Shown: in pieces, positions 622-63,384 of the stretch | Numbering within the stretch: position 1 is the first letter of the stretch | Layout: every line of letters begins with the position of its first letter | DNA from: Galaxea fascicularis | Lineage: Eukaryota; Cnidaria; Anthozoa; Scleractinia; Euphylliidae | DNA: 64,000 bases | Assembly (NCBI GenBank): GCA_948470475.1 | Contig: OX419346.1 | Location: 4,255,231 to 4,319,230 of the forward strand | Reading direction: 5' to 3' | The notes under the pieces: generated by a model | The model's input: the letters and a program-made list of their open reading frames with translations, nothing else | The model's database searches: none | What the model was told of the DNA's origin: nothing | Position numbers and translations under genes: made by a program

Positions 622-842
622 ATGTCTCCCTCGCGCCCTCTTGTGTCATATGGTGTTCCTGGAAGTAGACAAAGCGATTTGAGTTTATTGCAAAACTGGC
701 CGGTACAAGTACCTATGGCTCCCTCCGCTATCTCTCACCCTTCATTGCTCGCAAATTCGAGGAAGTCTTACTTTCTATCTTTTACTTGATAGTTAGCCAT
801 ACTCATTATTGCTTCATACGTCACTTCATTGCTTTGTTTGTA

Positions 843-1321
843 GATGAAGCCACCGAGACTGAAGGAGAAACACCACTCTATGATCACGTGCAAAAATTAA
901 CGTATTTAGACCAGGTCGTGTGCGTGGTGTTGCGTCTCTGTGCTCCCGCCTTCAACCTTCTCCGTGGTTGCGAAGAAGAGGTTGTCTATAAAGGCATCCG
1001 TTTTCCCAACGGGGTGGATGCTAACATCCCAAACTACGTCCTACATCGGGACCCGGAAGTTTGGGAAGTCCCCTTGCAATTGAGTTCAACCCTGAGAATT
1101 TATCCCCTGAGGCGAAGGAGAAGCGGGGCCCGTATTCTTTTATTCCGTTTGGAGCAGGTCCGCGTCAGTGCATCGGAATGTGACTCGCTCTATTGGAAAT
1201 TAAGCTGGTCTTGGCGAAATTTATGCAGCGATTCAAGTTTGAACGAGCCCCAGAAACGGTAGCCACATTGGAACAGCGTGCAGTCTTACTCATGGTACCC
1301 AAAGATACCATCCGTATGTAA
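843..1321 (+). pseudogene. Decayed last exon of a CYP3-clan cytochrome P450
   Basis: The translated sequence follows the last exon of the intact P450 at 15552-16114: 'LYDHVQK', 'YLDQV', 'VLRLC', 'YVLHRDPEVW'. Around 1075-1082 a net five-base insertion relative to the intact gene shifts the frame. The haem-binding signature FGAGPRQCIG is still readable at 1148-1177 in the new frame, and the next codon (1181-1183) is TGA where the paralogue has an arginine codon. After that stop the homology continues to a terminal TAA at 1319-1321. The first part of the exon (about 90 bases) is missing, although a fair splice-acceptor-like 'ctttgtttgtag' precedes the homology. The P450 core would be lost, so this is a dead tandem relative of the downstream gene, probably a truncated duplicate. 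No upstream exons are visible. Confidence 0.88.
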
Positions 1322-3268: not shown

Positions 3269-6200
3269 ATGGTGGACCCTCTAGAATTTCTACAGGGCAT
3301 ATGCTGGTCGAGTTGGCTAGCGGCGATCCTTGGTTTGCTAGCGTTAATCCGTTGGCAAGGTCTCCATCGATACAACTTGTTCCTCGGTAACTCACCTCTC
3401 CCTGGTCCCAAACCATGGCCTTGGATCGGCAACCTTCCGGACGTCTTCAAATATGGCGGAATACACAAAATGCTGCTGAACTACTTCTACAAGTATGGAA
3501 ACGTCCACAAGATGTGCCTTGGTAGAGCACCGGCCATTGTGGTCAGTGATCCTGAGATTGTGAGGCAAATTATGGTGAAGGAGTTTTGGAAGTTTCGCAA
3601 TCGACCCGCTGCTCTTAATCCCAAACCTCCCTTAGGCTCAAATCTATTCATCGCGCGTGATGAGAACTGGAGGCGTATTCGCAACACCATTTCGCCAACA
3701 TTCACCGCAGCCAAGCTAAAACAGATCGTTCCTATAATAGAGATTGCCTCGGAGAAGCTGATATCAAAAATGCAAAGGTTTTCTGAGACAGGTAAATATA
3801 ATTCGTGCGTGACGTCTGCGATTATTGTAGCACCTACACAATGGTTGGGGTTGATTTCATAACGTTTGCTGACCACATAACAAGTAGATGAGTTTAACGT
3901 GCGACTGGACACCAACCTCTCCCTCCCCCTCGAAAAGATAGAGTTTAGGTTTTGCCTGTCGTGACATTCATGCAGTGGCCCATCAGGCGGTGTTGGACAC
4001 GACTCTCAAAGCATGCCGGGAGAAATTTCCGACAGCTCTCATTTTCGCCTGATCGCCGGACGGTAAACAACTCCGTCGAGGGAGAAGATAGTCAAGATAT
4101 GAGGACTGCTTCCCATGCTCAAAGAAATCTCCGAAGATGTACACATTAAATCGTTCGCGGGGAAAGTAGCAGCTATAAATGCTTACTGCTGGATGCATAA
4201 TGGGAGTATTTACTGCATGAAACAACTCGGGCAAACCCCACTTAATTGATCGTATTTACTGCATGGAACAATTCGCACTTATTTCGATCGGCACTTTCTT
4301 CTTATTTGGAGTCTTATTGCTGACCAACAAGATACGCGCTATCGTGGTGTTTGATGGATTTTCGTCGAACACAAAAAGAGGAATCCACAAGGAAAAGGTG
4401 AGAATAATTCGAAAACAAAGCAATGTTGTGTTACTGTTTTTGAATCGAAAACTCGTGCAAAGCTTGAGTAATCGAGTCTCAGTCACTGTATTTTCTAATC
4501 AAAAGGAATCGTGACGAGTCTGCCAGTCAAGGGTTGGCCCTTTGGAGACAAGGAGAGAAAGACAAGGCAAGGATTTTTTTTTTAAAAGCAGTGGATGTAA
4601 CAAATGAAATGGCCCTGAAGGTGTTTGAGGTATGCATAAGTTTTAAAATTCTTTTAGTTGTATTGGAGTAACTCTCTAAAGAACTGACAGACTCAATGTT
4701 GCCTTTTTTGAGTAAGTTTGATGTCTTACACATGCATTAATTATTTGAAAGGTTCTTGTCATTACTTCTATAATTTAACTGTAAGCTAAGTTTATACATA
4801 TTGAAGCATAATTCATTGCATTGCCTTGAATTTGAGTAAATGCATGCCAGAAAAATGTATTTTGATGTAATGTATTTGCATTGGTATTTTTCCATTGTCG
4901 CTGAGGTTATTATTTTTTTATTTAGTCTTACAGGGAGAAGAAAATTCAGTGTGTAGTTCCTGAACTTGGAAGGCTTCACTGATTTTGTGATATCAGAGGA
5001 TTCTGACTTCTTGACACACTTAAATTCCAGGTGAACAAAATTTCAAAACTAAAAACTCAGTTTATCTATTAAATGTACAGGGGGTGTAAATGTATAAACC
5101 AGCTTGGGTGCCAGAAATGTTTTTTTTTTTCTCGGAGACTGCACATGGAAGTAAATAAGGTTAATTTTTTTTATTGCAGGTTTATGGGCATAAATATAAC
5201 TAGTAAATCTCAAGTAACTCTTGTTGAAAATTATTCATTGGACCGAAGTGTTGTTGTCAACAAAGTGGTGATCAAGTAATGATTTTAATATTACTGTAGC
5301 TACATTTTATGTTCATTACTTTGCCAGAAGCTGACACAACAGCACCTCCCATTGTACCTCATATTGACTGTACCAATGCAATTGTTCAACTGAAGGTCAT
5401 CAGTGTGGAACAAGGAACATTGCTATGGACTGTTCCATGTTTTCCATTTTTTGACTATTGAGCGGAGGAAGACAAAATCAGCCAGACAGAATGGAGTTCT
5501 ACAAAAGGCTATTATGATTTTCAGAGCATGCAATGAAATCTGGACTTCTCAAGTTAAAGACACGGTGACCGGAACTGAGCGCTAGCTTAAAAGACTGATT
5601 AAGGATTCATTAGTCAACAAATCGAGACAGCATATTGATGTCGGTTACGTATGTAATGTAAGAAGCGATTGACAAGATTAGCAGGTTTTGATTACAAACT
5701 TCACTAAGAAAATGTGCCTTTCGATTAGTACAAATCAGTTGTGATCTAAACGCCGTGAGCGGAACTTATTAAACTACAGAAGTAAACTCAAACTAAAGTG
5801 TGACTTTTTCTGGATACTATCTCCTGCGGCCGGAGAGTTCAGGAAACGTGGCGACCACGACGGGAGTGATCGAGTGAGTGAGTATAATTTAGTCCTCCAT
5901 TTGAAATTTCAAGGGCAACTTAACTACGAAGAAGATGGCTAGCGAAGCCCTCGAATCTACACTACAAACGAAACTAACGCAACTTGCAATCACTCAAGAC
6001 AAAACTGGAGATGTCCTGAAAACTGAAAAGAGAAGTACAATAGCAAGACACTTAGAAACCTTGAAGAACACGCTAACAGATGTGGAACACGCGCGGAGAG
6101 CGGTCGAAGCCCAAAAGATTGCAGCAAAGGAAACCACTGAAGAAATCAAAGAATGGAATGCTGGTGTGGAAGCTAAAGTCGTACAAGCAGATGAAAACCT

Positions 6201-9200
6201 TGAAATCCTCGAGGAATGGTTGCGCGATCAGAAACTGAGGCAGGAAACTCATGAGCAAGAAGAGCGAATGCAATTCGAGATCAAGCTATACGAAACCAAA
6301 CTAAAGCTTCAAGAAGAACTAGAACAGAAGAAGAATGAGGTCAGCGACACACCCAATACGCAAGCTAAGTTGCCAAAATTAGTCATTACTAAATTCAATG
6401 GAAGTTTTGCAGACTGGCCAAGGTTCTGGGGCCAATACTCTGAAACCATAGACAAGAGCAGCGTACCACCAGTGACCAAATTCAGCTACCTGAGAGAGCT
6501 ACTAGACCACAAAGTTAAGAAAGCAGTAGAAGGCTTGCCACACACCGCAGAAGGTTATAATCGTGCCGTATCCATCCTCAAGGACAGATTTGGCAAGGAG
6601 AGTGAGATAGTCAATGCCTACGTGAAAGAATTACTCGATCTGCCTTACATCCCTACACCAAACGCCAGGAAGATTCATGAGTTCTACGACAAGCTCTCAT
6701 ATTGCGTGCAATCGCTGGAAAGCCTAAAACAACTCCACACAGTTAATGGAATGGCATCGATGACTCTGGAAAAGCTACCGGCAATAAGAGGAGACCTCGT
6801 CAGGAATGACCCAGATTGGGAAACCTGGGGTTTCTTAAAACTAACCGAAGCACTAAAGCTGTGGACGCGTCGAAATCCAACCGAGGGCAGCAAAGAAAGA
6901 CCAAACCGAGTTTTCCAAACACAACAGAAGGAAGGCAAACGTTCGTGCGTGTATTGTCACGCCAGCGACCACAAGCCATCGGAATGTACCGCAGTGACGT
7001 CAATAGAAAAGCGTAAAGGAATTCTAACGACAAAGAAGTTGTGTTTCAATTGCACAGGTCCTTATCACAGATCTGCAGAATGCAAAAGCACCGCCACATG
7101 TCAACACTGCAAGAGGAGACACCACACGTCGATTTGCGATAAGACAAAGGAATTAAAACCTGAAGGAGTGATGACAGCCCACCCACACTCAGGCGAAGGC
7201 GTTATTTATCCGGTCGTTCTTATCGAAATTGATGGCATTAAGACGCACGCGTTACTGGACACAGGCGCCGGAAGTTCTTACGCGTCGGCGAAATTGATCA
7301 AAGCCCTAAACAAAAGGCCGAAAGAAACGAAAACAAAAAGAATCGACATGATGCTTGGTTCAACCACAACAAAGGTCGAGATTTATTCAGCTACCCTCAA
7401 CGCAGTTGACAGCGACTTCAAAATGAACATTGAGTTATCGAAAGTTCAGAAACCTCAACTGATGACAATCGACAATCCCAATTACGCTGCGCTGGTCGAG
7501 AAATACAGCCATCTTAAAGGTGTCAAAATCAATGACCCCGATGATAGACCTCAATTTCCGATTCACGTGGTACTAGGGGCCAGCGAATACGCTTCCATAA
7601 AAACGACAACAGCACAAAGAGTAGGAAAACCAGGACAGCCCGTGGCGGAACGGACGCTACTTGGTTGGACAGTCATGTCACCTGGAAGTGAGGACGTCGG
7701 CCACCCAATTCTGTTGACGCAATCGACCTCTGCAGATTACGAACAATTGTGCGCTCTGGACGTACTTGGCCTCGCAGACACCCCAGAGAACGATCAACTC
7801 ACGGTATTTGAAGAATTTAAAGAACAATTGGAGCGCAGTCCCGAAGGATGGTACCAAACTAAGCTGCCCTGGAAAGAGAACCATCCTCCGTTACCTACAA
7901 ACGAAACTGGAAGCAAGAGACGATTGGAGCACCTTATCCGTAAGTTACAACGCAACTGCCAGTATGGAGAATACGATGACATCATCCAGGAGCAACTGCA
8001 GCAAGGAGTGATCGAGATCGCGCCCGAGAAACCTAGTACAAAGGAGTTCTACATCCCGCACAAAGGAGTTAACAGGAAGGAAGCCGAGAGCACTAAACTT
8101 CGAATAGTATACGACGCATCAGCCAGAGAAAGCAACAGTCAGCCATCACTAAACGATTGCCTTCATCCAGGCCCCCCGCTACAAAATCTGCTCTGGAGCA
8201 TTTTGGTGCGTTCAAGGTTCTACCCCCTGATCCTAACTGGAGACCTCCAGAAGGCATTCTTACAGATCCGAATCAAGCAGGAAGAAAGGGACGCGTTGCG
8301 GTTTCATTGGAGACACCCTAGCAGTTGCCAGACCGTAGTCTACCGGTTCACGAGAGCATTATTTGGTCTTACGTGCTCACCATTTCTCCTTGGAGGAGTA
8401 ATACAGCAGCATCTCGAGAAGTGGGAACATCGATACCCAGAACTGGTCAAAGAGATACGCGACGGCCTTTACGTTGACGATTTGATGGCAGGGGGAGCAA
8501 CCATCGAGGAAACGAAAGGGAAGAAAGCTGCCACTATTGAAGTTTTCCAAGACGCCACCTTCACAGTTCATAAATGGCACTCTAATTCCTCAGAGCTTGA
8601 AGCAGAAAACGATTCTGACGCAGGAGAGTTGACACACGCAAAACAACAGCTTGGAGGCACCAAGCCATCCGGATGTAAACTGCTTGGTCTACCCTGGGAC
8701 CGAGAACAAGACGTCCTCCGCGTCGTTTTAAACGTTGAAGAGGGAAGCAGCACTACCAAGAGGAGCATTCTGTCACAGCTCGCCAAGGTATACGATCCAT
8801 TAGGCCTAGCCTCACCAAACACGCTGAATGGGAAGCTACTATATCGTGACATCTGTGATACCAAGGTACCCTGGGATGCTCAACTACCAGAACCACTGCT
8901 AAAACGCTGGACGGGATGGAGCAACACCTTAACTGACGACCTGACGGTTCCACGCGCACTTGCACCATATCACCAGCCGATCTCTGAAATCACGTTACAT
9001 GCTTTCGGTGACGCAAGCATCCACGGAGTCAGCGCCGCCGTTTACGCGGTCGTCCAACAAACTCAAGGCCTTACACAAGGCCTCGTCTGCGCAAAGTCTC
9101 GCATCGCGAAACGTAACTTGACTATTCCTCGGCTGGAACTGATAGCTGGGCACATGGCAGTGAATCTCGTGACCAATGTGCAAAAGGCCCTTCGCACAGA

Positions 9201-12200
9201 TCCAGTCGGAATCCACTGCTGGCTAGATTCGACAGTTGCACTCTACTGGATTAAAGGCAAAGGGGAGTATAGGCAGTTCGTGGCTAACAGAGTTCATAAG
9301 ATTCAGCAGTTCAGTGAAGTCTCATGGCATCACGTTCCGACCTCAGAAAATCCAGCTGATCTGGGGAGTCGAGGGCTAAATGTCGTAAACAGTCAACTGT
9401 GGAAAAAGGGCCCTACCTGGTTAAGCGACCCACCTAAATGGCCACAAGACGTGCTGTTAAGTCCTTCACCTGAGAGCCTGGCAGAAGCTAAGACCACACG
9501 AGAAATACTGACGACAGCCATGACCGAAAATGATGCCCTTAACCATCTGTTTGACAAGTACCCACTCAAAACCGTGTTAAGAATTGGAGCATGGATTTAT
9601 CGCTTTATCTACAACTGCCAAAATAACCCTGGAAGAAAACAGCAAGGACCAATCAGCACGCAGGAAGTCGAGCAGCAGGAACTGTGGTGGATCAAGCAAG
9701 CCCAAAAGGCGGCTCAGCACAGCTCACAGTTTCAAGCAGATCAACTCCAACTGAATCTTCAATTGAATGCCCAACAAGTGCTGGAATGCAGAGGGCGTAT
9801 CCTTGGGGAATACCCGATTTACCTACCAGATAATCACCCCTTCACCCAGAAACTAGTCTTCCAAGCTCACCTCGCCACTCTCCACGGAGGCGTGGGCCTC
9901 ACGATGGCGAAGGTACGAGAAAAGTACTGGGTGCCTCGACTGCGACGCCTAGCAAAAAAGATGAGGGGAACCTGCAACGGGTGCAAGAGATTACGAGCAA
10001 AGCCCTACCCAGCACCACCACCGGGAAACTTGCCCAGCACGAGGACGCAAGGTTCTACTCCATTTCAGGTCGTAGGAGTCGACTTTGCTGGACCAATTCG
10101 TTACAAGTCTACCCCCAAAACGGAGAGTAAAGCCTATCTAGTACTATATGCATGCAGTCTTACCAGAGCAGTCCACCTGGATTTGCTGAAGTCCTTGGAA
10201 GTTCGAGAGTTCATCCCAAGCCTTAAAAGGTTCATTGCTCGCAGAGGAAGGTCGGAAATCATCTACTCAGACAATGGCGCAACCTTCAAAGCCGCAGCGA
10301 AATGGCTTCAAAAGGTACGAAAAGATGAGCAGTTTCACAAGTTCTTGGCAGACTCCTCTATCAAATGGCATTTCAATTTAAGTCGGGCCCCATGGTGGGG
10401 AGGGCAGTTTGAGCGCCTCATAGGCCTATTTAAGAGTGCCTTCAACAAGTCAATCGGTAACGCAACGCTACGATGGGCAGAGCTTGAGGAAGTGGTGTTA
10501 GACGTTGAAGTTGCCCTCAACAATCGACCTTTGGGTTACCTAGAAGATGATGTCGAGCTACCTGTCCTCACCCCACACTCAATGTTGCATATGAACCCGA
10601 GCTATTTGCCAGAGCTGGAAGCGTATCATGTACCTGACAAAGATTTACGGAAACGGGCCAAATATCTTATCAAGTGTAAAGAAGTCATGTGGAATCGTTG
10701 GACTCGTGAGTATCTGAGGAGCCTGCGAGAACAACATCGTCAAGCTGGAGGAGAGCAGACATGCCATCCTAATACCGGTGATGTCGTCATCGTGAAAGAT
10801 GACAACAAAAACAGGCACTTGTGGAAGCTTGGTATCGTGTCCAAACTGATCAAAGGCAAAGACGGAATCGTGAGAGGGGCCCAACTAAAAACGACCAACG
10901 GTAGCATTGAACGCCCAGTTCAGCTCCTGTATCACTTGGAACTGACATGTGATCGCCAAGCTAACACTGTGCTCGATCCAACAGCCCCTGAGTTCAGACC
11001 ATTGAGTTCTAGACCACGCAGAGATGCCGCAGTCGCGGCCGCGGTTAGGATGCAGGACATTGCAGCACAAGAGTGAACATTATTCCTTATTGTATAGCGT
11101 TTAATCGGAACTCATGAACTAGTTTGAGTGTTTCATCTAAATTCCTTGACAGCAATTTATATGGGGGAGGGTGACCGGAACTGAGCGCTAGCTTAAAAGA
11201 CTGATTAAGGATTCATTAGTCAACAAATCGAGATAGCATATTGATGTCGGTTACGTATGTAATGTAAGAAGCGATTGACAAGATTAGCAGGTTTTGATTA
11301 CAAACTTCACTAAGAAAATGTGCCTTTCGATTAGTACAAATCAGTTGTGATCTAAACGCCGTGAGCGGAACTTATTAAACTACAGAAGTAAACTCAAACT
11401 AAAGTGTGACTTTTTCTGGATACTATCTCCTGCGGCCGGAGAGTTCAGGAAAACGGTTATGTAACCTTGACCACATCATGCTTTCTTGAGATGAAAATAA
11501 AAAATAAATGACCATAGAAGTGTTGACTCTGTTTACATTTCCTCATGTGAGGTTGACTGCTTAAGTGAACAAAGTACAGGAGACAGTGATGATGAGGGAG
11601 ACCCTGAGTCAGACAGGAGAGACTCAGGAGGCCTTAGTGCTACATACCCTCCCATTTAAGGTTATGGGGGTTGCCCACATATTAAACAAGACAATATGTT
11701 TAAATTATGCAAATGCAATTAGTGTTTTTATTGACTATGGACTTGGATTCAAACAAGTTGGCTACATTGGCCAAGAACTAACTAAATTCAATTCATCCAT
11801 CCTCTTATCCAGCAAGGCAGGCTACAGTACGCCTCTGTTCATGACATGAAATTTTTAACAGCATGGGCCAAATCAGGGTATTTTATGACATTGCAACTTG
11901 CATTTGAAGGGGAATAACCATCCCAAGTTTTAAGAGCTAGTAAAACCATTCAGTAGTCTGTCAAAATATTGTTACATTTGATTTTTCTTGGTCAAAGCAT
12001 CCCTGTATGGATGATCTGCATACAGTGTATATGTGCATTTCTTTGGCGGTTAGTTGGGAGTGCCTCCACTTGAGGGCCAAAAGGCCGCTTTGAGGACATG
12101 CCGAAGAACTGGATCACATAAACACTAAAAACAAATAGCAGGAAAGCATTACAACATAATACAACAATAATACATACTCTTATAGTAATAAAACTTCTAC

Positions 12201-15200
12201 AGGAATCACACCATCAACTCCCGCGAAATGCCGTGAAATTGAGGAGAATATGTGACAAATTACGAAAAAGCCCAAACTTCAAGGCAGATTTTCATCGTTA
12301 AAATGGCGGGGCCCGCCTGGGCCCGCCGCACGTTTCTTAAAGATCAACTATCGAACTAAAGTTCTGTGCAAAAATAATCCCCGATACTGACCCTTGATTG
12401 TCGAAAATCGAACAAATGATTGTCCATGTCAAACGCGTGTGCGTGACAACCGTTTTCAATTCAACAAGATTTCCATCGACTAGTTTTAATACAAAAAATG
12501 CTTACCTGAATTTAAAACTTGAACAATAACTGGCCCATATATTAAACTTGAAGCTCCCAGAAAATATTCCTTTCTTTCTTTACATCAATGTGGAAATCGG
12601 TCGAAGACGATGAACCATTCTTGACATTCCGAGACGAAAGTGTCCGCCATTGCTTCTGCAAAGGCGACGTTATGATTGGCCGATTAATGTCACGTGAACC
12701 GTGTCCAACACCGCCTGGTGGCCCATGGTTGGGTTTGTGTGTGGGTACCGTGAAGACACACGTCTCAAAACCTGACCACGATCTAGAGCGACAATTTCAG
12801 ACCACGATATATAGATTGACGTACTCTGTTGAAGATTTATCCTCTAAAGTCTCTCTTTTTTCCCAAACAAGCTTGGCTTGGCTGGAGTTGCTGACAAAAC
12901 GTGACGAGCACCCTTAAATCCAAGATCCTAGCAACACGAACTAACACGTATCCTTAATCTTTAATTGGATAAATTGCTAATAGCAAGGGTGATCTGGCAA
13001 TGGCAAAGCATGATTGTTGTAGAATTTTATGTAGTCAAGTAATTGGTTTTGTCATTTTGAAATATCTTCAGGTAGCACGAATCACTATGTAGCCGGAGCT
13101 AAAGGGAATATCGACTCATGTTTTTCGTGCACTTAATCGCAAACACGTCCACACAAGCATCGCTTTTGATTCCCGACATTTTTTTGACAAATTAGACAGA
13201 AGTAGCCAATTATTCACATAATTGTCTCGACAGCAGCTAGGCTTATATCGGATGATCGTTCTGTTCTGTTGGTTCTGTGATCATTCTGCGTTTCTGTGAT
13301 GGCATTAGATAAATGTTTTTCTTATGACCAGTCATTGATGAGACTTCCTGTCCCTAACAAAAGTATGCAGATCTCACCGGCTAATCGGTTTACTGGTTAG
13401 AATTAGGCTGCCGATATCTGTGTTTAACAAAGGAAGGATCAGAAGATGTAGGAAATGATTAATTAGTAATTTTCAGAAGAACAGCAGCCAGTCAACGAAA
13501 ATTGCGCTGATACTATAATACAAGTTCTGCGCAGTGATTTCTTGTGACTGTTTAATTTCCTAAACTAGCATTTTAGCAAGTGTTTATCTCCGGCCTAACG
13601 CAGACTCCCTGTTGCTATATCACGGTTGCAACTTCAAGAGCATTCAGTTGACCCTCCAGCAATCCTTTTATCACCACGTTTACTCCATCCCTTAAAAGCA
13701 AAAGCCTTAGAAAAGACAGAAAAATCTGCGTAGTATCGTCAGCCTGTGAACGTAAAGGCCAACGAAACTGATTTGAAAATACTTGATTTGTCAGTACGGC
13801 CATCAATTTTTACAGTCACGATATGCCTCTCCAGTTGTTAGGAAATTACCTCTCAGAACTTCGGAACTCTTTTAGTAATATTGGCAATGTTTTCGTGTAT
13901 TTGAGGGCAACCCCAGATGTCGGGTTTTCGAAGCGTATTTTATCGTGGCTATGAGGATGCAAGCGACCTGAGTTCGTCTCATGCTCACCTTTTAAAACTG
14001 TCATTAATCGGTCATCAGCCCAACACTATAGGACCGGAAGTGTTCTATTCTGTAGAAAAACGGGCACCGTCTGTCAGGTTCGGTCAGGTGCTATCTCTGA
14101 TTCTGCGCGCTGGCTCCAGGTCACCTCAACCGGGTAAATTGCGTTCAGTTTGCGCAATGAATTATGTGGTGCTGTAAGTATGGGCAGCAACTGTCAAGAA
14201 TAATATAATATAATAATAATATAGCACGAAGACCAGAATCTTCGAGGATTTTCGATTCAAATAAATATTTATGTTTCAATCCTCGTAGGTGAAAGCGCCG
14301 ATGTCAGTCAAATGTTCAGCTTGTTTGCGCTGGATGTCATAATGAAAGCTGCGTTTGGTCTGGAGACCGACATCCAACTGAACCCTGATCCGGTATTCGT
14401 CGAGAAAGCAAAAAGGGTTTTCCAAACACCCTTCTGGATTCGATTCTTTTCCATGTTCCCCTTATGGAATTACTTTAGGAGGTATAGTGCACTTAAATGT
14501 CAAATGTTACCGTTTGGCAAATTTAATCCTTTACATTCCCATGAATAGCCACTGTCATCACTTAACATATCACTAGTCAAGCGTACAGACATGAGAATAC
14601 AGGAAATGATCCCCAGTGATCAGTCGAGTTGACGTTTATACAAATTCTCCCTACTTGTAACAAACGAAATATGTGAGAATTGTAAAGAGAATTAGAAATG
14701 TTGATACTGGGGATTAGCGATTTAACTCAACCTCTGAACACAATTCTTCGCATCGTAGATACATCAACGTCCTCCAGGAAGCGGACTACTTTTTGGCCTT
14801 AGCGAAAGAAATGGTGGAGCAAAGAAACCAGCAGGGTTTCAAGGGCCAAACGGACCTTGTGCAACTGATGCTAAACGCACACGAAGAACATGTGGACGGA
14901 GTTAGTAAGCTTAGTGATGACGAGATTATGGCCCAATGTGTTCTATTTCTAGTGGCAGGTTTCGAAACTACAGGTAAATGAAACTATGGGTAATTGGCCT
15001 AGCGGCGAAAGAAAGCTTCCCCACACTGGGGTCTTGGGTATGCCTATTTTCTACGAAACAATGAATGGTCTATCCCTTCGATCTTTACCTAGCTAAGCAA
15101 GCAGTTTGTAGGAGGAAATTAATTGTCGTACACTTTTTTTTTTTTCATGAAAACGTTTAAGTTTGGAGCTAATGCTCGACGTCCTTAGTTTGTTTCCGCG

Positions 15201-16114
15201 ATTTGAGCCTGAAAACGTTCCTAATGTGTTCTTAAGTTACATGGTATACACACGATGTCGCCGGCGCCAACCAACTGCTGGTAAATTAGCTTTAAAAAAG
15301 CATTAAACATAGAGGTTCACAACGCGACATAAAGTCACCAGATTTTGCCGTGAAAAAGCAGGAAAAGTTCATGTTTACATAATATACTACTCATTTAATC
15401 ATATTATAATTTTGGCTAATCTCAGCCTCAACGTTCTTATAAAAAAGGTTCTTATGAAAAAAGTGTATTAACAGGTACTGGCCAAAACGAGGTTTTACAT
15501 GGGTGATTTCAAACTGACTTGCTTCTAATATTGTTTTTACTCGCGGTCCAGGCAATACTTTGACGAGCATTGCATATTATCTGGCTACATACCCTGATGT
15601 TCAAGATCGTCTCCTCCAGGAAATTGACGAGTTGGTCGAGACGCGCGATAATAAGGCACTATATGACGTGGTACAAAAAGTCGGGTACATCGATCAAGTC
15701 ACCTGGGAGGTCCTGCGTCTCTGTGGACCTGCATTCAACATTATCCGAGAGTGCGCAGAAGACACCATTTACAAAGGTATTCGCTTTCCTAAGGGTATCA
15801 GCATTAACATCCCAACGTACGTTTTGCATCGGGACCCGCAAGTATGGGAGAATCCACTGGAATTCAACCCTAAAAATTTCTCCCCTGAAGCGAAACAGAA
15901 GCGGGATCCGTTCTCATTTCAACCGTTTGGATCAGGCCCACGGCAGTGCATTGGAATGCGGCTAGCTATGTTGGAAATCAAACTAGGACTAATGAAAGTG
16001 TTGCGGCGATTCAAGTTTGAACGCGCCCCTGAAACCGTCGTAACATTGGAGCATAAGGCAATGCTCCTGATGTCACCCAAGGATACCATCTACGTCAAGA
16101 TAAGAGCCCGTTAA
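3269..16114 (+). CDS. CYP3-clan cytochrome P450 (CYP3A/thromboxane synthase-like), 4 exons, 497 aa
   Basis: Microsomal haem-thiolate monooxygenase; the substrate cannot be read from sequence. Exons: 3269-3791, 14289-14481, 14759-14973, 15552-16114. All junctions are GT..AG with matching phases (1, 2, 1) and total 1494 nt, the normal length for the family. The protein has an N-terminal membrane anchor (about residues 10-33), a proline-rich hinge LPGPKPWPWIGNL, I-helix AGFETT ending at residue 309 (exon 3/4 junction), ExxR as EVLR (E363-R366), and the haem loop FGSGPRQCIG with Cys443. The ATG at 3269 has A at -3 and G at +4; an upstream in-frame TTG is not needed. Overall order and motifs follow CYP3A/CYP5A. 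Intron 1 is 10.5 kb because it contains an EXO1-like relic and a full BEL retrotransposon in the same orientation. A MITE lies directly at the stop codon. A broken paralogous exon lies 2 kb upstream, so this was a small P450 cluster. Confidence 0.93.
4103..5030 (+). pseudogene. EXO1-like (XPG-family nuclease) gene relic with introns
   Basis: In order along the plus strand there are fragments resembling the N-terminal nuclease of exonuclease 1. At 4103-4225: 'GLLPMLKEISEDVHIKSF' then 'INAYCWMHNGSIYC' (EXO1 has a GLL...TYCWLHKGAIAC pattern). At 4263-4398: 'LLLTNKIRAIVVFDGF' followed by a GT donor. At about 4530-4630: 'LWRQGEKDKAR' and 'KAVDVTNEMALKVFE' followed by GTATGC. At about 4975-5030: 'DFVISEDSDFL', the acidic active-site block. 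An in-frame TGA, frame changes between fragments, a partial local duplication ('gtatttactgcatg' twice) and loss of the APYEADAQ block make it non-functional. Intron-like gaps remain, so it is a segmental copy, not a processed one. It lies inside P450 intron 1. Domain identity is from recalled family motifs and was not searched. Confidence 0.65.
5031..5561. other. P450 intron 1, unclassified sequence left of the BEL element
   Basis: Contains T-runs, a possible acceptor (ttattgcag at about 5180) and short coding-like stretches around 5320-5450, but no family I can name. It may be the 3' continuation of the EXO1-like relic, or part of the same host segment that resumes at 11457 on the other side of the retrotransposon. 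Confidence 0.4.
5566..5846 (+). repeat. 5' LTR of the BEL element
   Basis: It begins TGACCGGAACTGAGCG and ends TTCAGGAAA. It matches 11172-11452 over 281 bases with one difference. Part of the terminal AAA could belong to flanking sequence; the ends were chosen to give the ACGG target duplication. Confidence 0.95.
5849..5864 (+). other. Putative tRNA primer-binding site
   Basis: TGGCGACCACGACGGG starts two bases after the 5' LTR. TGG at the start is the complement of a tRNA 3' CCA end, as expected for a minus-strand primer site. The type resembles the arginine-tRNA primers used by many invertebrate LTR elements, but the tRNA was not checked. Confidence 0.6.
5935..11076 (+). CDS. BEL/Pao gag-pol polyprotein, 1713 aa, intact
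   Basis: One frame from ATG at 5935 to TGA at 11076. Residues 1-150 are charged and coiled-coil-like (gag). About 145-300 matches the gag region annotated as DUF1759 ('FNGSFADWPRFW'). Zinc knuckles start near residue 338 (CVYCHASDHKPSEC) and 365. The aspartic protease core LLDTGAG has its Asp at 442. Reverse transcriptase carries YVDD from residue 846, followed by an RNase H-like region (HAFGDASIHG). The integrase has an HH-CC zinc region (His about 1312-1317, Cys1347 and Cys1350) and a D1383, D1446, E1493 catalytic triad, followed by a DUF5641-like C-terminus. No envelope-like frame follows. No stop or frameshift is present, unlike the LINE fragments at the right of the window. Confidence 0.97.
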   Translation: MASEALESTLQTKLTQLAITQDKTGDVLKTEKRSTIARHLETLKNTLTDVEHARRAVEAQKIAAKETTEEIKEWNAGVEAKVVQADENLEILEEWLRDQKLRQETHEQEERMQFEIKLYETKLKLQEELEQKKNEVSDTPNTQAKLPKLVITKFNGSFADWPRFWGQYSETIDKSSVPPVTKFSYLRELLDHKVKKAVEGLPHTAEGYNRAVSILKDRFGKESEIVNAYVKELLDLPYIPTPNARKIHEFYDKLSYCVQSLESLKQLHTVNGMASMTLEKLPAIRGDLVRNDPDWETWGFLKLTEALKLWTRRNPTEGSKERPNRVFQTQQKEGKRSCVYCHASDHKPSECTAVTSIEKRKGILTTKKLCFNCTGPYHRSAECKSTATCQHCKRRHHTSICDKTKELKPEGVMTAHPHSGEGVIYPVVLIEIDGIKTHALLDTGAGSSYASAKLIKALNKRPKETKTKRIDMMLGSTTTKVEIYSATLNAVDSDFKMNIELSKVQKPQLMTIDNPNYAALVEKYSHLKGVKINDPDDRPQFPIHVVLGASEYASIKTTTAQRVGKPGQPVAERTLLGWTVMSPGSEDVGHPILLTQSTSADYEQLCALDVLGLADTPENDQLTVFEEFKEQLERSPEGWYQTKLPWKENHPPLPTNETGSKRRLEHLIRKLQRNCQYGEYDDIIQEQLQQGVIEIAPEKPSTKEFYIPHKGVNRKEAESTKLRIVYDASARESNSQPSLNDCLHPGPPLQNLLWSILVRSRFYPLILTGDLQKAFLQIRIKQEERDALRFHWRHPSSCQTVVYRFTRALFGLTCSPFLLGGVIQQHLEKWEHRYPELVKEIRDGLYVDDLMAGGATIEETKGKKAATIEVFQDATFTVHKWHSNSSELEAENDSDAGELTHAKQQLGGTKPSGCKLLGLPWDREQDVLRVVLNVEEGSSTTKRSILSQLAKVYDPLGLASPNTLNGKLLYRDICDTKVPWDAQLPEPLLKRWTGWSNTLTDDLTVPRALAPYHQPISEITLHAFGDASIHGVSAAVYAVVQQTQGLTQGLVCAKSRIAKRNLTIPRLELIAGHMAVNLVTNVQKALRTDPVGIHCWLDSTVALYWIKGKGEYRQFVANRVHKIQQFSEVSWHHVPTSENPADLGSRGLNVVNSQLWKKGPTWLSDPPKWPQDVLLSPSPESLAEAKTTREILTTAMTENDALNHLFDKYPLKTVLRIGAWIYRFIYNCQNNPGRKQQGPISTQEVEQQELWWIKQAQKAAQHSSQFQADQLQLNLQLNAQQVLECRGRILGEYPIYLPDNHPFTQKLVFQAHLATLHGGVGLTMAKVREKYWVPRLRRLAKKMRGTCNGCKRLRAKPYPAPPPGNLPSTRTQGSTPFQVVGVDFAGPIRYKSTPKTESKAYLVLYACSLTRAVHLDLLKSLEVREFIPSLKRFIARRGRSEIIYSDNGATFKAAAKWLQKVRKDEQFHKFLADSSIKWHFNLSRAPWWGGQFERLIGLFKSAFNKSIGNATLRWAELEEVVLDVEVALNNRPLGYLEDDVELPVLTPHSMLHMNPSYLPELEAYHVPDKDLRKRAKYLIKCKEVMWNRWTREYLRSLREQHRQAGGEQTCHPNTGDVVIVKDDNKNRHLWKLGIVSKLIKGKDGIVRGAQLKTTNGSIERPVQLLYHLELTCDRQANTVLDPTAPEFRPLSSRPRRDAAVAAAVRMQDIAAQE
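11163..11171 (+). other. Polypurine tract of the BEL element
   Basis: GGGGGAGGG abuts the 3' LTR. This is the expected plus-strand priming site for an LTR retroelement. Confidence 0.75.
11172..11452 (+). repeat. 3' LTR of the BEL element
   Basis: 281-bp direct copy of 5566-5846 with a single C-to-T difference. It is followed by the target duplication ACGG at 11453-11456. Confidence 0.95.
11457..12300. other. P450 intron 1: relic with a possible HIRAN-like fragment
   Basis: A plus-strand frame at 11640-11850 contains 'PFKVMGVAH', 'NAISVFIDYG' and 'VGYIGQELTKF'. These resemble the HIRAN DNA-end-binding fold (…NAI.V…VGYI..EL…), but the middle is deleted and there is no start or domain partner. 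On the minus strand near 12095 a short ATG-initiated stretch (MSSKRPFGPQVEALP) looks like a gene start after a splice acceptor, but it cannot be extended. Both are probably transposon-borne or dead gene pieces interrupted by the BEL insertion. Identification is tentative. Confidence 0.3.
12301..14288. other. Remainder of P450 intron 1
   Basis: It opens with a GC-rich palindromic 'ggcggggcccgcctgggcccgcc' type stretch near 12304, then ordinary AT-rich intron. Frames at 12588-12917 and 13917-14177 show no domain signal. It ends in the acceptor tcctcgtag at 14281-14288. Confidence 0.45.
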
Positions 16115-17442: not shown

Positions 17443-19125
17443 TTAGAAAATACGAGTTGCGTTCATAAGGCTACTGGGAACTTTAAATCCCGGTGACAGA
17501 CCATTTTCGTCAAAAGGAAGGAAGTAAAAGTCCGCAAAATGTCCCAATTGGCCGTAATAGCAAGTATCTGTAGGATATACAAAACTGGCTTGGAATAACA
17601 ATTCATAGCCAATATAACGAACCTCGAAGTTTTGTTTGGGAGATGACACCACCAGGAAATTATCGTTTCTTACGATTTGCACCACTGATGTGATGATTTT
17701 AGAACTTATGAGATCTGTTTCAGCTAAGGTGTAGTTTCCAATATAAGGCCCCGGCTCGACTGGGAATGGGGCGGAACGTTGTAAGTCAAAGAGAGTGTCA
17801 TTTAAAGCAGGGAGAAGTATTTTAAAGATGTCGCGTTCTAGTGAGGGTGGGGTTCCTTTCGGAATAAAGGTATTTGAACTTATGAGTAGATTCATGCCAA
17901 CTTGCAGCTCAGGGACCACCGAAAATGCTGCCGTGTACGAATCGATGTTGCCCCCTTTATTTCGAACCAGATAATTTTCTTGGAACGTCATTTCCCACGG
18001 AGCTCCCCATAACGTTACCCCGTCAGAAGCAATATTCATAGGGTACATCATTTCCCAGAGAGAAGCCGGTTCAAAGAGGCTTTGTCTCGATGGCTGGGTA
18101 AACATCATTCCAAGCTTGGCCATGTCTTCGAGCGTTGAGTACATTTGGCCAGTTGGGGCGATCCAGTTGATATTCATGAAGGGAAGCCTTGTGCCATTTG
18201 CATAATGCGGAAAAGCCATGTTCTTACGCACATCTTCGGTGATGACAAACCCAGTGTCAGTCATGTTTAAGGGTCCCAAGATACGCTCGCTTACCCAGCT
18301 CTCAAAGGTCTGATTTTTCAAGAGTCTCTCAGTCAGCAGCCTGCCAAGTAAAGCGTATCCAAGGTTACTGTAAGAAGGCATAGTTCCTGGGGGTAGCACC
18401 AGGCTGCGATTCTTCAGTTTCTCTAATTGGTCTTCGGAAGTGACATTGGCACAAATGAAGAAGCAAGGTGCTTCGCGTGGTAACCCCGACATCTGACTCG
18501 CAATTTGTCTCATAGTGATATTCTTCATCGTGAAGGGATTTTTAATGTAAAAATCCGGAGCGTATTTACTTAAAGGGTCATCGAGCGAATCAATCAAGCC
18601 ATCTTCGTAAAATTTATACAGCATCAAGACTACGAAGACCTTAGAGATGCTTCCAATTCGGTAAACCGTCTGGTCACTGGGCTTGTTTTCCCCTTTGTAA
18701 ACTTTACGTCCATAATGCGAACTCCAGAGCGTCCGATTCTGATAGAATATGTTGACTGATATCGCAGGAAGCTGTGCTGTTGTGTTGACAGCAGAGTTGA
18801 CAAGGTCTCCAATCCTTGATAGCGCCTTGGAAAGCCCTTGAGGAATGGAGTTCGGCATGGGAAGAAGACTTGGTTGCCGAGGACATGGAAGCTGATATTT
18901 CGGCAACTCAGTTTTGCTCTCTCTAGTGTTGATGTCTACTCCACCGTTCTCGTCGTTTCGCTTGACATCGCACTGTTTATCGTCCTTTAAGACCTGCCAA
19001 ATGAGCAAAGCTGTCACGATAATTGCGACTATGCACGCTATAGAAGCGACAGCTTGCCATATTCTCACTGTTCGTGAATTTTGGAACGTTATCGACTCAA
19101 TCACGAGATTTTCAACACTCGCCAT
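17443..19125 (-). CDS. Membrane-anchored beta-lactamase-fold serine hydrolase (LACTBL1-like), 560 aa
   Basis: A single uninterrupted frame. A short cytoplasmic N-terminus is followed by one hydrophobic segment (about residues 22-46) that acts as a signal anchor, a Cys-rich/proline linker, then a class C beta-lactamase/penicillin-binding fold. The catalytic SxxK is S159-I-S-K162 (GSISK), the YxN motif is Y252-S-N254 (PSYSNLGYALLG), and a KGG near the region 'NKGGNIDSY' takes the place of the KTG/HTG third motif. All active-site elements are therefore present, suggesting an active peptidase or esterase with the catalytic domain outside the cytosol. Many N-x-S/T sites fit a glycoprotein. The family is the animal LACTBL1-like group; its substrate is unknown. 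It is intronless, minus strand, and head-to-head with a clear paralogue at 24131-25810. Length and domain order match that paralogue closely. Confidence 0.9.
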   Translation of the reverse strand: MASVENLVIESITFQNSRTVRIWQAVASIACIVAIIVTALLIWQVLKDDKQCDVKRNDENGGVDINTRESKTELPKYQLPCPRQPSLLPMPNSIPQGLSKALSRIGDLVNSAVNTTAQLPAISVNIFYQNRTLWSSHYGRKVYKGENKPSDQTVYRIGSISKVFVVLMLYKFYEDGLIDSLDDPLSKYAPDFYIKNPFTMKNITMRQIASQMSGLPREAPCFFICANVTSEDQLEKLKNRSLVLPPGTMPSYSNLGYALLGRLLTERLLKNQTFESWVSERILGPLNMTDTGFVITEDVRKNMAFPHYANGTRLPFMNINWIAPTGQMYSTLEDMAKLGMMFTQPSRQSLFEPASLWEMMYPMNIASDGVTLWGAPWEMTFQENYLVRNKGGNIDSYTAAFSVVPELQVGMNLLISSNTFIPKGTPPSLERDIFKILLPALNDTLFDLQRSAPFPVEPGPYIGNYTLAETDLISSKIITSVVQIVRNDNFLVVSSPKQNFEVRYIGYELLFQASFVYPTDTCYYGQLGHFADFYFLPFDENGLSPGFKVPSSLMNATRIF

Positions 19126-23652: not shown

Positions 23653-24130
23653 GCATTACTTCGAACTCCCCCTACAGTACTTTTCTCCAAGATTTCTTTA
23701 CGGCACATCACATATCATGTCGCTGTAACAAAAGGCATTGTAACTTTTCTTATCAACGATATTATTGTAAACTCTGGTATTAGCCTCCAGCTAAAGACTG
23801 TAACTAAAACCGGAAGAACTTCAAGAGTGCAATGTTCTCAGTATCAATCATTTTATCGCAATCCACGCCAAATGAACACCTATTGTAGCCGACATATGTT
23901 CGTACTTGTCAACTGGTGGTGTTTTCATTTATTGATTTTCTCGAGTCCTGATTAAAACGATAGCACGTACTTTACGAGCCTGCCATGCAGTTAATATTCT
24001 TCTGTCACACCATACTGCTATTCCCCTGACGAACTGTCATGTAACGGTTACCCAGTAGCTAATTTAGTGATGAGTGAAGACGGGGTATAATGCTATCTCG
24101 ATTTCCTCCATCACGACAGAAAGCGGTAAC

Positions 24131-25810
24131 ATGGACAACAATGAGAATCTGGCGAAAGTGAGCAAGCTTGAGGTAACCAGAAAGAAGGCATGTTTATGGA
24201 AGCTAATTGCAATCGCTGCTTCTTTTGGGGTTGTAGTATTGGCAGCCCTGTTAATATGGCAAATAGCCACTCGCCCTGCCTCTAGCCAGAAGGCGTCATG
24301 CAAGACTTCTGGAACTGATAACACCTCGTCTTCTTCGACTCCACCTTGTCCACGGATGCCAACCATTCATCCTTTACCTAATCCTTTGCCGGTGGAATTA
24401 GAAAAGGTTTTTAAGGAAATAGAGACCATGTTGACAACAATTGTGGACAAGGAAACGTCGTTGCCTGGAATTTCAGCGAATGTCTTTTACCGGGATACCA
24501 TCCTCTGGAAAGGACATTTCGGCAGCAAATTGTTCAAAGTGAAATACAACTCGACACCTGATGACAATACAGTGTATCGTATTGGAAGTATCACAAAGAT
24601 CTTCCCTGTGCTCTTAATTTACAAGCTGTACGAGAAAGGTGTCATACAATCAATTGATGACCCTTTGAGTAAATACGTCCCTGACTTCAACATAAGAAAT
24701 CCTTTCAGCAACGAGGACATCACGCTGAGAGAAATCGCGAGTCAGATGTCGGGCCTTCCACGAGAAGCACCTTGTATTTACCTCTGTGAAGGAACCAATT
24801 CCACGGAGCAGCTGGCGCTTCTGAAGAGCAGAAGCCTGGTATTCGCCCCTTGGAAAATGCCATCTTACAGTAACCTGGGATACGTTCTGCTGGGTCGCTT
24901 GATTACAGAGTACGTACTCAACACGACATTTGAGGAGTGGGTTCAAGATGAGATGCTTAAGCCTCTTAGGATGAGCAAAACTGGATTCGAAATCACACCT
25001 CAAGTCGAAAGGAATATGGCACTTCCGTACCACAACAACGGGCAAAGGTTACCTTTATCGAGGATCGGCTGGGCAGTTCCTGCTGGGGGAATGTACTCCT
25101 CTCTAAGCGACTTAACCAAATTGGGAATGATGTTCACCAGGCCGACGAGCCAAAGCGTCTTCAAACCGTCCACACTTCGTGAGATTGCCCTGCCTGCGGA
25201 TATCGCTCCTGATGGGACAACCCTTTGGGGATCACCATTCGAAATGTATCTCTCTAATGGATTTCTCGTGCGAGGTAAAGCGGGAAACATCGACAGGTAT
25301 GATGCTTACTTTTCCTTTGCACCACAACTTGAACTTGGTATCAACATTTTGATAAGCGGATTTAACTTTGTAAAATCTAAAGGAATGTCATCGTACTTAA
25401 TCGGCAAAAAGGCCTACAATCTGATATTACCAGTACTTAACCGTACGTTATTTTCCATAGACAAGAAGGCGACCTTTCCAATTACTCCAAAGACATTCAT
25501 TGGATGGTACCTTGTGGAGCAAACAAACATACCGACCCTGACCAAAACCTACAATGCCTCTATAACAGAATCAAATGGCGTGCTAATCTTTAAAGGTTTT
25601 TCAGAAACGGCATTCCCTTTTGCGGTAAGGTACATCGGAGATGCGCTGGTTTTCCGGGCGGAGTTTTTGAATCCTAAGCTTTCCTGTCTCTCGGTAAGAA
25701 TTGGGATATTTGCCGACCTCCATTTTGATCCTACAGAACGCGATGGATTGTCTCATGGATTTAACATACCGCAATGGGCGATGGTTGGACGACGGATAAA
25801 GAAGACCTGA
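24131..25810 (+). CDS. Membrane-anchored beta-lactamase-fold serine hydrolase (LACTBL1-like), paralogue 2, 559 aa
   Basis: Start chosen at ATG 24131; the frame is open upstream to a GTG at 24074 but there is no earlier ATG. One signal-anchor segment (about residues 22-46, ending LLIWQIA, matching LLIWQVL in paralogue 1), then a Ser/Thr/Pro and Cys linker, then the hydrolase domain. SxxK is S153-I-T-K156 (GSITK), YxN is Y246-S-N248 (PSYSNLGYVLLG), and the third motif is KAG in 'GKAGNIDRYDA'. The blocks 'DDPLSKY.PDF', 'IASQMSGLPREAPC' and 'MPSYSNLGY' are shared with paralogue 1. The frame is intronless, a shared trait that suggests duplication after intron loss, or an intronless ancestor. The 5-kb head-to-head spacing makes a shared minimal promoter unlikely. 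Expected to be an extracellular or luminal serine hydrolase of unknown substrate. Confidence 0.9.
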   Translation: MDNNENLAKVSKLEVTRKKACLWKLIAIAASFGVVVLAALLIWQIATRPASSQKASCKTSGTDNTSSSSTPPCPRMPTIHPLPNPLPVELEKVFKEIETMLTTIVDKETSLPGISANVFYRDTILWKGHFGSKLFKVKYNSTPDDNTVYRIGSITKIFPVLLIYKLYEKGVIQSIDDPLSKYVPDFNIRNPFSNEDITLREIASQMSGLPREAPCIYLCEGTNSTEQLALLKSRSLVFAPWKMPSYSNLGYVLLGRLITEYVLNTTFEEWVQDEMLKPLRMSKTGFEITPQVERNMALPYHNNGQRLPLSRIGWAVPAGGMYSSLSDLTKLGMMFTRPTSQSVFKPSTLREIALPADIAPDGTTLWGSPFEMYLSNGFLVRGKAGNIDRYDAYFSFAPQLELGINILISGFNFVKSKGMSSYLIGKKAYNLILPVLNRTLFSIDKKATFPITPKTFIGWYLVEQTNIPTLTKTYNASITESNGVLIFKGFSETAFPFAVRYIGDALVFRAEFLNPKLSCLSVRIGIFADLHFDPTERDGLSHGFNIPQWAMVGRRIKKT

Positions 25811-62037: not shown

Positions 62038-62140
62038 CAGTATAAAATATGGACTGCGGACTACGGACTGGGTATAAAACACGGACTGAGGTATAAAATA
62101 CGGACTAAGACTGCGGACTGGGTATAAAACACGGACAGGT
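62038..62140. repeat. Tandem 'tataaaacacggactg' repeat
   Basis: About four copies of a GGTATAAAA(C/T)ACGGACT-type unit, some with an extra 'gcggact' block, directly abut the truncated end of the LINE endonuclease fragment. Confidence 0.75.
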
Positions 62141-63384
62141 AAAGCGAATTCTTCACTCTTATTGATTTCCTTATCCCGCGAGTAATCCAGGCCGGCTTTG
62201 AGAGTTGCTTGACTCTTCGTCGTGACGGAGTTTTCAAGGGGGCATGTTCATCCACGACTTTATTCACCTTGTTGTAAAATGTAGAGAAAGAACTATTTAT
62301 ATTGCCTTGTTCCGTGGTGATAACGGTATCCCAGTTAATTTCAGCGAGCTCAGCAAGAAAATCATGTTCTGAGAACTGAGAATAATCTCTTTTTGATATT
62401 TTGCTTTTTCCTGCTGTCACCTTGACACCATGAACAATACAGAATTGGGAATAGTGGTCGCTAATGTCACATACGATGTTCCCACTTTTAATTTTGCTAG
62501 CAAGCTTGTTAACGAAAATATTGTCAATTAGAGTTGCGGAGTTATTATATACTCGAGTTGGTTTGTCAACTGTTGGAATTAATGAATAGCTTTGTAATGA
62601 GAGAAGAAATTTATGTGCATAATTACATGTTTCAACAGCAAGGAGGTTTATATTGAAGTCACCCATGATAAAAATGGGTTTATTTAAAGCGCTGAACTTT
62701 TCTATTGTTTCATCAAAATAGTCCAAAAATTGATGTGGAGAGTTATGTTGTCTATACACCACGCCACAGATAATGTTTGGCTGCCGAGAGAGATGAAATT
62801 CGATCCATAAAGCTTGGAACGCCTCGTTGGAAGTTTTGTCAATAATCGTGTAATTCAAGCTGTCCTTGATATACATGCCAACACGTCCTCCAGAAGCTAT
62901 AGGTGTCGGAACATACTCAAATTTATAGCCAGATATAGACGTGTCAAAGTTTACAGAATCAACTGTACTTATTTTAGTTTCAGAAACTCCAATTACAGAA
63001 AAAACTATAATTTAGTTCGTCTAACAAATGCACCTGCAGGTTTTCAAGGTTTCGCCTTAGGCTTCTTACATTATTATGAAGCAGAGAGAAATTGCTTTCG
63101 CTGCGAGGTAGCTTATTTTTTAAGATATTGAAGCTATGTGGCGAATAATAGTGGCTCTTTATGTTTTCATAAAACAGCTCAGAATTGGGGTTTAAGCCGT
63201 TTTGTATGTTTAAAGAGAACAGATCTAAATCATATAGACTTGAAAGTTTATCTAGATACTTCTTGGTAGGCAAACTACTGTTTATGATGTTATTAAACTG
63301 GCCGTGATATGAAACATTGTCACTCACACTGGCGTAAGGCAGTTCGCGAAATAACGATTTCGAAGTCATTGCTATAGTGATCAC
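62141..63384 (-). mobile_element. 3'-truncated LINE: APE endonuclease part
   Basis: Minus-strand frames with AP-endonuclease motifs of non-LTR retrotransposons: 'NNVRSLRRNLENLQ' (about 63050), then 'VSETKIS', 'SGGRVGMYIKD' (about 62880), the catalytic GDFNINLL (about 62650), 'TLIDNIFVN' (about 62530), SDHY (about 62460). One frame change at the T-run near 63008-63013 separates the first segment from the rest. The reverse transcriptase part is absent: homology stops at the tandem repeat near 62140. Not the missing half of the RT fragment at 59.5-60.6 kb as far as can be seen. A minus-strand frame upstream (63423-63671) might be older LINE sequence but is unrecognised. Confidence 0.85.

What the first reader, a model, noticed from the sequence alone, without database searches (positions are those of the whole stretch)
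5562..11456. Nearly pristine BEL/Pao retrotransposon in the first intron of an intact P450
The sequence shows LTRs with 1 difference in 281 bases, a 4-bp target duplication, a primer-binding site, a purine tract and a 1713-aa open gag-pol with all catalytic motifs. It lies in the sense orientation in a gene whose exons are intact. That makes it a candidate active element and a likely insertion polymorphism able to alter P450 transcripts.
Basis: partly seen in the sequence, partly recalled or inferred. Interest (0 to 1): 0.75.

Follow-up and report, generated by a model that had tools for sequence, protein, structure and literature searches.

The report
Young retrotransposon nested in coral P450
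A complete, recently inserted jumping gene of a known type (BEL/Pao) sits inside another, short jumping gene within the first intron of an intact P450 enzyme gene of a coral-like animal; it is a clean example of ordinary genome turnover, and nothing yet shows that it affects the enzyme gene.

Summary
Window 5566-11452 is a complete BEL/Pao element: 4-bp target duplication (ACGG), 281-bp LTRs with one difference, a 19-nt primer-binding site matching the genome's own tRNA-Arg(UCG), a purine tract and a 1713-aa open gag-pol. The host gene is a CYP3-like P450 with four intact coding exons, aligning gap-free to a Porites P450; the host is a hexacoral, probably stony.

None of 25 sister copies examined carries the insertion, which confirms the boundaries. 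The host copy's 0.32% private divergence caps the insertion's age. The one LTR difference is derived in the 5' LTR: its own 3' LTR and five LTRs elsewhere share the other base. Gene conversion is therefore not needed.

The family is small in the readable genome: three copies with internal sequence, three solo LTRs and one fragment (lower bounds). Polymorphism, mobility and any effect on P450 transcripts remain untested. By its position, an LTR promoter could not make full-length P450. Verdict: new member of a known kind.

The parts
3269..3791 (+). P450 coding exon 1 (residues 1-174 and part of 175)
   Evidence: ATG, GT donor; Pfam p450; gap-free alignment with Porites lutea P0001
3975..3983 (.). 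9-bp target duplication GTGGCCCAT, left, of the TIR element
3984..5565 (.). left part of the 2,843-bp non-coding TIR element (TIR CAGGCGGTGTTGGACACG); includes the left ACGG
   Evidence: 56 forward and 55 reverse exact TIR ends in the genome, 0 for the reversed control
5562..5565 (.). BEL/Pao target duplication ACGG, left copy
5566..5846 (+). 5' LTR, 281 bp, TGACC...GGAAA; private C at 5628; ATTAAA at 5768
   Evidence: termini confirmed by three solo LTRs with 4-bp duplications
5849..5867 (+). primer-binding site, 19 nt, tRNA-Arg(UCG)
5935..11076 (+). single open gag-pol frame, 1713 aa
   Evidence: domains; no other ORF of 80 aa or more between 5935 and 11076 exceeds 98 aa
6946..7137 (+). triple Cys-His box of gag (third with HH doublet)
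8470..8481 (+). RT active site YVDD
9868..10413 (+). integrase H2C2 finger and D1383-62-D1446-46-E1493
   Evidence: Pfam rve not hit
11163..11171 (+). polypurine tract GGGGGAGGG
11172..11452 (+). 3' LTR, 281 bp
11453..11456 (.). BEL/Pao target duplication ACGG, right copy
11453..12717 (.). right part of the TIR element, ending CGTGTCCAACACCGCCTG
12718..12726 (.). 9-bp target duplication GTGGCCCAT, right
14289..14481 (+). P450 coding exon 2
14759..14973 (+). P450 coding exon 3
15552..16114 (+). P450 coding exon 4 with haem-binding FGSGPRQCIG and stop

Best explanation
A full-length BEL/Pao LTR retrotransposon of a small anthozoan family integrated recently, with a 4-bp target duplication, into a copy of a 2.84-kb non-autonomous TIR transposon that already lay in intron 1 of a CYP3-like P450. 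Shown: complete structure, host tRNA-Arg(UCG) primer site, nesting, sister copies without the insertion, solo LTRs elsewhere, recency, intact P450 exons. Inferred: it was made by the usual tRNA-primed reverse transcription and integrase-mediated insertion; it is (or very recently was) competent; the P450 pre-mRNA normally splices the whole 10.5-kb intron out, so the insertion is nearly neutral for P450. The family also decays in the ordinary way, by LTR-LTR recombination to solo LTRs.
For: Anatomy. Primer. Nesting and 25 of 25 examined sister copies without the insertion. Family in the own genome: LTR search 8 matches = its 2 LTRs, 5 other LTRs at 95-99% and one 41-bp fragment; gag search: only itself above 78%; 3' search: itself, 99% and 96% copies, the other 14 of 17 at 80% or less. 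Three solo LTRs with perfect 4-bp duplications GTGT, ATAG, GGTA. Recency: 1/281 LTR difference, derived in the 5' LTR; host copy private 9/2782. Selection on the lineage: versus the 99.6% C10 copy, 9 synonymous and 7 nonsynonymous changed codons, 0 stops; P 0.006-0.026 by kappa for that many synonymous. P450: 497/497 residues aligned without gap to Porites lutea, 68% identity.
Against: No test of mobility or expression was possible. Pfam rve missed and protease models below cut-off. The LTR date is loose by itself (95% interval 0.005-0.99% per lineage). Parts of some other copies read N in the held genome, so the family may be larger than counted. The LTR ends in AAA, not the usual CA, which could matter for integrase recognition, although at least four insertions used it.
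Confidence: 0.9

Rival explanations
1. The insertion is a regulatory allele: LTR promoter, enhancer, splice or poly(A) signals change the P450's expression and the insertion segregates in the population.
For: Sense orientation; young; an ATTAAA hexamer in each LTR at 5768 and 11374 could end transcripts after exon 1; an LTR fragment upstream of Drosophila Cyp6g1 is causally associated with resistance (PMC2891717, start of abstract in the listing).
Against: No expression or population data. It lies downstream of exon 1, so an LTR-started transcript cannot encode the N-terminal membrane anchor; the Cyp6g1 case is upstream of the gene. The exons and splice sites are intact. The hexamer is short and occurs by chance often.
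Confidence: 0.1
2. An older insertion whose LTRs were made alike by gene conversion.
For: LTR pairs can be homogenised in principle; 1/281 alone gives a wide interval.
Against: The one difference is private to the 5' LTR; the own 3' LTR and 5 of 5 other LTRs have T. The ORF is open over 5.1 kb: at 1% neutral divergence the chance of no stop is 0.10, and 0.002 with an assumed 0.1 indels per substitution. The surrounding host copy has only 0.32% private change.
Confidence: 0.03
3. Assembly or collapse artefact joining a repeat to an element.
For: Both flanks are repetitive, the kind of place where assemblies err.
Against: A perfect 4-bp duplication inside a site contiguous in sister copies, plus the TIR element's own matching 9-bp duplication at its two outer ends 8.7 kb apart.
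Confidence: 0.02
4. Recent horizontal arrival from another animal.
For: Few copies; a 96% identical 812-aa relative without an organism name occurs in public assemblies.
Against: Older relatives are resident in the same genome: a 96% internal copy and LTRs differing by 2-4%. Named relatives among the listed hits are all anthozoan.
Confidence: 0.03

Closest known systems
BEL/Pao LTR retrotransposons (ICTV Belpaoviridae, genus Semotivirus; PMC8742986, whole held text read)
   Same: LTR length, total length, tRNA-Arg primer site, purine tract, Gag-PR-RT-RH-IN order, one continuous frame
   Different: Host is a cnidarian, whereas the ICTV table lists vertebrates, insects and nematodes (others report Cnidaria, PMC3118150 passages); LTR ends AAA
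Sinbad of Schistosoma mansoni (PMC554778, passages read)
   Same: Triple Cys-His box, LLDxG protease, YVDD, DAS, D-62-D spacing
   Different: DD46E here against DD49E; 281-bp against 386-bp LTR; TG...AAA against TGT...TCA; HH doublet in the third Cys-His motif; intact here, broken in the published Sinbad copy
Unnamed anthozoan BEL/Pao proteins, e.g. in Dendronephthya, Oculina, Stylophora, Montipora
   Same: Same Pfam set; 65-73% identity for the closest unnamed full-length ones, 56-68% for the named ones
   Different: Different families; nearest hit is an unnamed 812-aa protein at 96% over 82% of a 1000-aa piece
Mutator-like (MULE) non-autonomous transposons, for the surrounding repeat
   Same: Terminal inverted repeats and 9-bp target duplications (9 bp as a MULE mark is recalled, not from a call)
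   Different: No transposase found in this copy or in the ORFs scanned from longer copies

Membership tests
BEL/Pao (Belpaoviridae) | LTRs 0.2-1.2 kb, element 4.2-10 kb (PMC8742986) | tested here: met
   281-bp LTRs, 5,887 bp
BEL/Pao (Belpaoviridae) | about 18-nt primer site to tRNA-Arg or tRNA-Gly (PMC8742986) | tested here: met
   19 nt to tRNA-Arg(UCG), 2 genomic genes
BEL/Pao (Belpaoviridae) | polypurine tract of about 10 nt before the 3' LTR | tested here: met
   GGGGGAGGG, 9 nt
BEL/Pao (Belpaoviridae) | triple Cys-His box in Gag (PMC554778 passages) | tested here: met
   aa 338-401
BEL/Pao (Belpaoviridae) | Pao peptidase/RT region (Pfam Peptidase_A17), YVDD, DAS | tested here: met
   PF05380 at 9e-18 and 2e-19 in two pieces; YVDD 846, DAS 1026
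BEL/Pao (Belpaoviridae) | aspartic protease LLDxG ... LIG | tested here: inconclusive
   LLDTG present, second motif LLGW at 575; Pfam protease models below cut-off
BEL/Pao (Belpaoviridae) | integrase with expanded D-D-E spacing (Sinbad D62D49E) | tested here: met
   D62D46E with H2C2 finger; Pfam rve not hit
BEL/Pao (Belpaoviridae) | RT phylogeny within a named BEL/Pao clade | not tested
   no named clade references at hand; clade left open
Mutator-like TIR element (surrounding repeat) | 9-bp target duplication | tested here: met
   8 of 9 copies examined have perfect 9-bp repeats; the ninth lacks an intact 3' TIR
Mutator-like TIR element (surrounding repeat) | MULE transposase in an autonomous partner sharing the TIR | tested here: inconclusive
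   0 Pfam hits above cut-off in 8 ORFs of the window copy and 5 ORFs of two longer copies; other copies not examined, one partly unreadable
CYP3-clan P450 (host gene) | haem-binding FxxGxRxCxG, ExxR, AGxET, intact frame | tested here: met
   FGSGPRQCIG, EVLR, AGFETT in the 497-aa model (motif names recalled); Pfam p450 in the two exons scanned; CYP3A-like relatives

The most novel reading that the evidence does not exclude
The element belongs to a small, still mobile family, the insertion segregates among living colonies, and it changes how much full-length P450 is made, for example by ending transcripts at the LTR poly(A) signal or by an LTR enhancer.
Probability: 0.08. Interest if true: 0.6.

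Novelty: new member of a known kind. Interest (0 to 1): 0.28.

Why it matters
It is a well-bounded, dateable insertion: stratigraphy (retrotransposon inside a young TIR transposon), sister copies without it, solo LTRs and a polarised LTR difference all agree. That makes it a good marker for asking whether BEL/Pao elements still move in corals and whether such insertions affect detoxification-type P450s. It also carries a practical warning: genotyping from the immediate flanks would read dozens of paralogous empty sites and could falsely report a polymorphism.

Tried and rejected
Gene conversion, old age, assembly error and horizontal arrival were weighed and set aside (see rivals). A bacterial promoter/terminator scan of the LTR is not meaningful for an animal and is not used. 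Solved-structure search of the RT piece gave only weak MMLV-type RT matches, E 0.002 at best. A search for an autonomous partner of the TIR element in three longer copies found no transposase. Literature: searches returned 0 papers; one search returned 61 and one, and none of the listed titles concerned this insertion or coral BEL elements in a P450; these searches are narrow. No coral mutation rate usable for dating was found in the listing, so no absolute age is claimed.

Own slips: 16 first P450 model missed exon 4 and misplaced the start by 3 bases, corrected; one search fetched the wrong side of the C10 copy, corrected; one search printed a 3-nt primer match because of a one-base error at the tRNA end, corrected.
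Full report
Where it is. The window is G000:C12:4255231-4319230, in a 416.6-Mb assembly of 170 contigs. The P450's best named relatives are Porites lutea and Acropora millepora proteins (68% over the full length), then Nematostella (54%), so the host is a hexacoral, probably scleractinian; no species name is available.

The host gene. Four coding exons (3269-3791, 14289-14481, 14759-14973, 15552-16114), all with GT-AG borders, encode 497 aa without a stop. The model aligns to Porites lutea P0001 over 497 of 497 residues without a gap, including across the exon 1-2 junction that spans the insertion. Intron 1 is 10,497 bp; 8,734 bp of it is the nested block, and about 1,754 bp would remain without the block and one copy of its 9-bp duplication. 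A broken last exon of a neighbouring P450 lies upstream at about 741-1312 in two frames.

The element. LTRs 5566-5846 and 11172-11452, ACGG duplication, tRNA-Arg(UCG) primer site of 19 nt, purine tract, and one 1713-aa frame. Pfam on pieces gives DUF1759, RVT_1, Peptidase_A17, Integrase_H2C2 and DUF5641 above cut-off, and aspartic protease below it; rve was not found. The motif set (triple Cys-His, LLDTG, YVDD, DAS, D62D46E) fits the Pao/BEL description in PMC554778 (passages), and the plan fits the ICTV profile PMC8742986 (whole held text), which names tRNA-Arg or tRNA-Gly as primers. The closest full-length relatives in the protein collection are 71-72% identical over a 1000-aa piece; one 812-aa relative is 96% identical over 815 aligned columns. 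In both lists only the best 120 are shown and candidates were capped, so closer ones may exist.

The 866 bp upstream of the insertion match the genome in 54 places; besides the window itself 24 rows match (near) full length at 93-99%, and only 40 of 77 candidates were scored, so this is a lower bound. The matches continue past the insertion: window 3984-5565 plus 11457-12717 form a 2,843-bp non-coding element with an 18-bp exact TIR and a 9-bp duplication GTGGCCCAT. The exact TIR occurs 56 times forward and 55 times reverse in the genome, 0 times for the reversed control. Eight of nine copies examined have a perfect 9-bp duplication; the ninth lacks an intact 3' TIR. No Pfam transposase was found in it or in ORFs of two longer copies (a third longer copy had no readable ORF to scan), so its class is open; 9-bp duplications point to Mutator-like elements (recalled).

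Sister sites. Of 25 sister sites examined (24 near-full-length copies and one shorter one), none carries any 15-mer of the LTR and all align across the insertion point: 13 with ACGG, 6 ACAG, 3 ATGG, 3 otherwise, one of the latter with a small insertion. The remaining rows were not examined. These are paralogous, not allelic, empty sites: they prove where the element went in, not that an empty allele exists.

The family. The LTR search gave 8 matches: the window's two, C10 (99%), C12 (98%), C2 (97%), C1 (97%, partial), C2 (95%) and a 41-bp fragment on C5. Three are solo LTRs with perfect 4-bp duplications GTGT, ATAG and GGTA, confirming the unusual ends TGACC...GGAAA; a related family on C8 has identical LTRs with TG...CA ends and apparently a TTTG duplication. 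Internal sequence: C10 (16 differences in 3,878 bp) and C1 (96% in 972 bp, with its LTR about 1.9 kb away). The gag piece matches only the window above 78%. Parts of some copies read N, so all counts are lower bounds.

How old. LTR pair: 1/281, or 0.18% per lineage, 95% interval 0.005-0.99%. The changed base is private to the 5' LTR. The host TIR copy has 9 private substitutions in 2,782 sites compared with five close copies, 0.32% (interval 0.15-0.61%); as the retrotransposon came later, this is a ceiling, subject to the choice of the five copies. In the 3' 972 bp, polarised by the C1 copy, the window has 3 private changes and C10 has 3. With an assumed 1e-9 to 1e-8 substitutions per site per year (no call), 0.18% is 0.2-1.8 million years. 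Window against C10: 9 synonymous, 7 nonsynonymous changed codons, no stop; under neutrality 24-30% would be synonymous, P 0.006-0.026, so most of the difference was gathered while the lineage was under selection for function, that is, while replicating.

How it works, and what it does to P450. Shown: structure, position, recency. Inferred: usual tRNA-primed reverse transcription and integration. For the P450, LTR-started transcripts would contain exons 2-4 only, without the membrane anchor; a poly(A) signal (ATTAAA at 5768 and 11374) might shorten some transcripts; the simplest case is that the intron is spliced out. The Drosophila Cyp6g1-Accord case (PMC2891717, start of abstract in the listing) is upstream of its gene and is an analogy only.

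Verdict. The finding is real, precise and well bounded, and ordinary in kind.

Noticed in passing
window 3984-5565 and 11453-12717: A dispersed 2.84-kb non-coding TIR element with 9-bp target duplications; 56+55 exact TIR ends genome-wide, and four of the fetched copies differ from each other by only 0.1-0.2%, so this family moved very recently; no transposase identified.
   Followed up: partly
window 741-1312: Last-exon fragment of a second, neighbouring P450, shifted between two frames: a likely P450 pseudogene in a tandem array.
   Followed up: partly
L004, L005, L011 (solo LTRs) and window LTRs: LTR ends are TG...AAA instead of the usual TG...CA, supported by four insertions with perfect 4-bp duplications.
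   Followed up: partly
L038 and L039 (C8 near 16.90-16.91 Mb): Another BEL/Pao family with 100% identical LTRs over 255 aligned bases, TG...CA ends: a second very recent insertion in this genome.
   Followed up: no
window 17443-19125 (-) and 24074-25810 (+): Two single-frame beta-lactamase-domain proteins of 560 and 578 aa, about 70% alike in DNA over 328 bp, in opposite orientation.
   Followed up: no
window 47201-48169 (-) and 62061-62876 (-): An ORF with six EPTP domain stretches, and an endonuclease domain of the LINE type.
   Followed up: no
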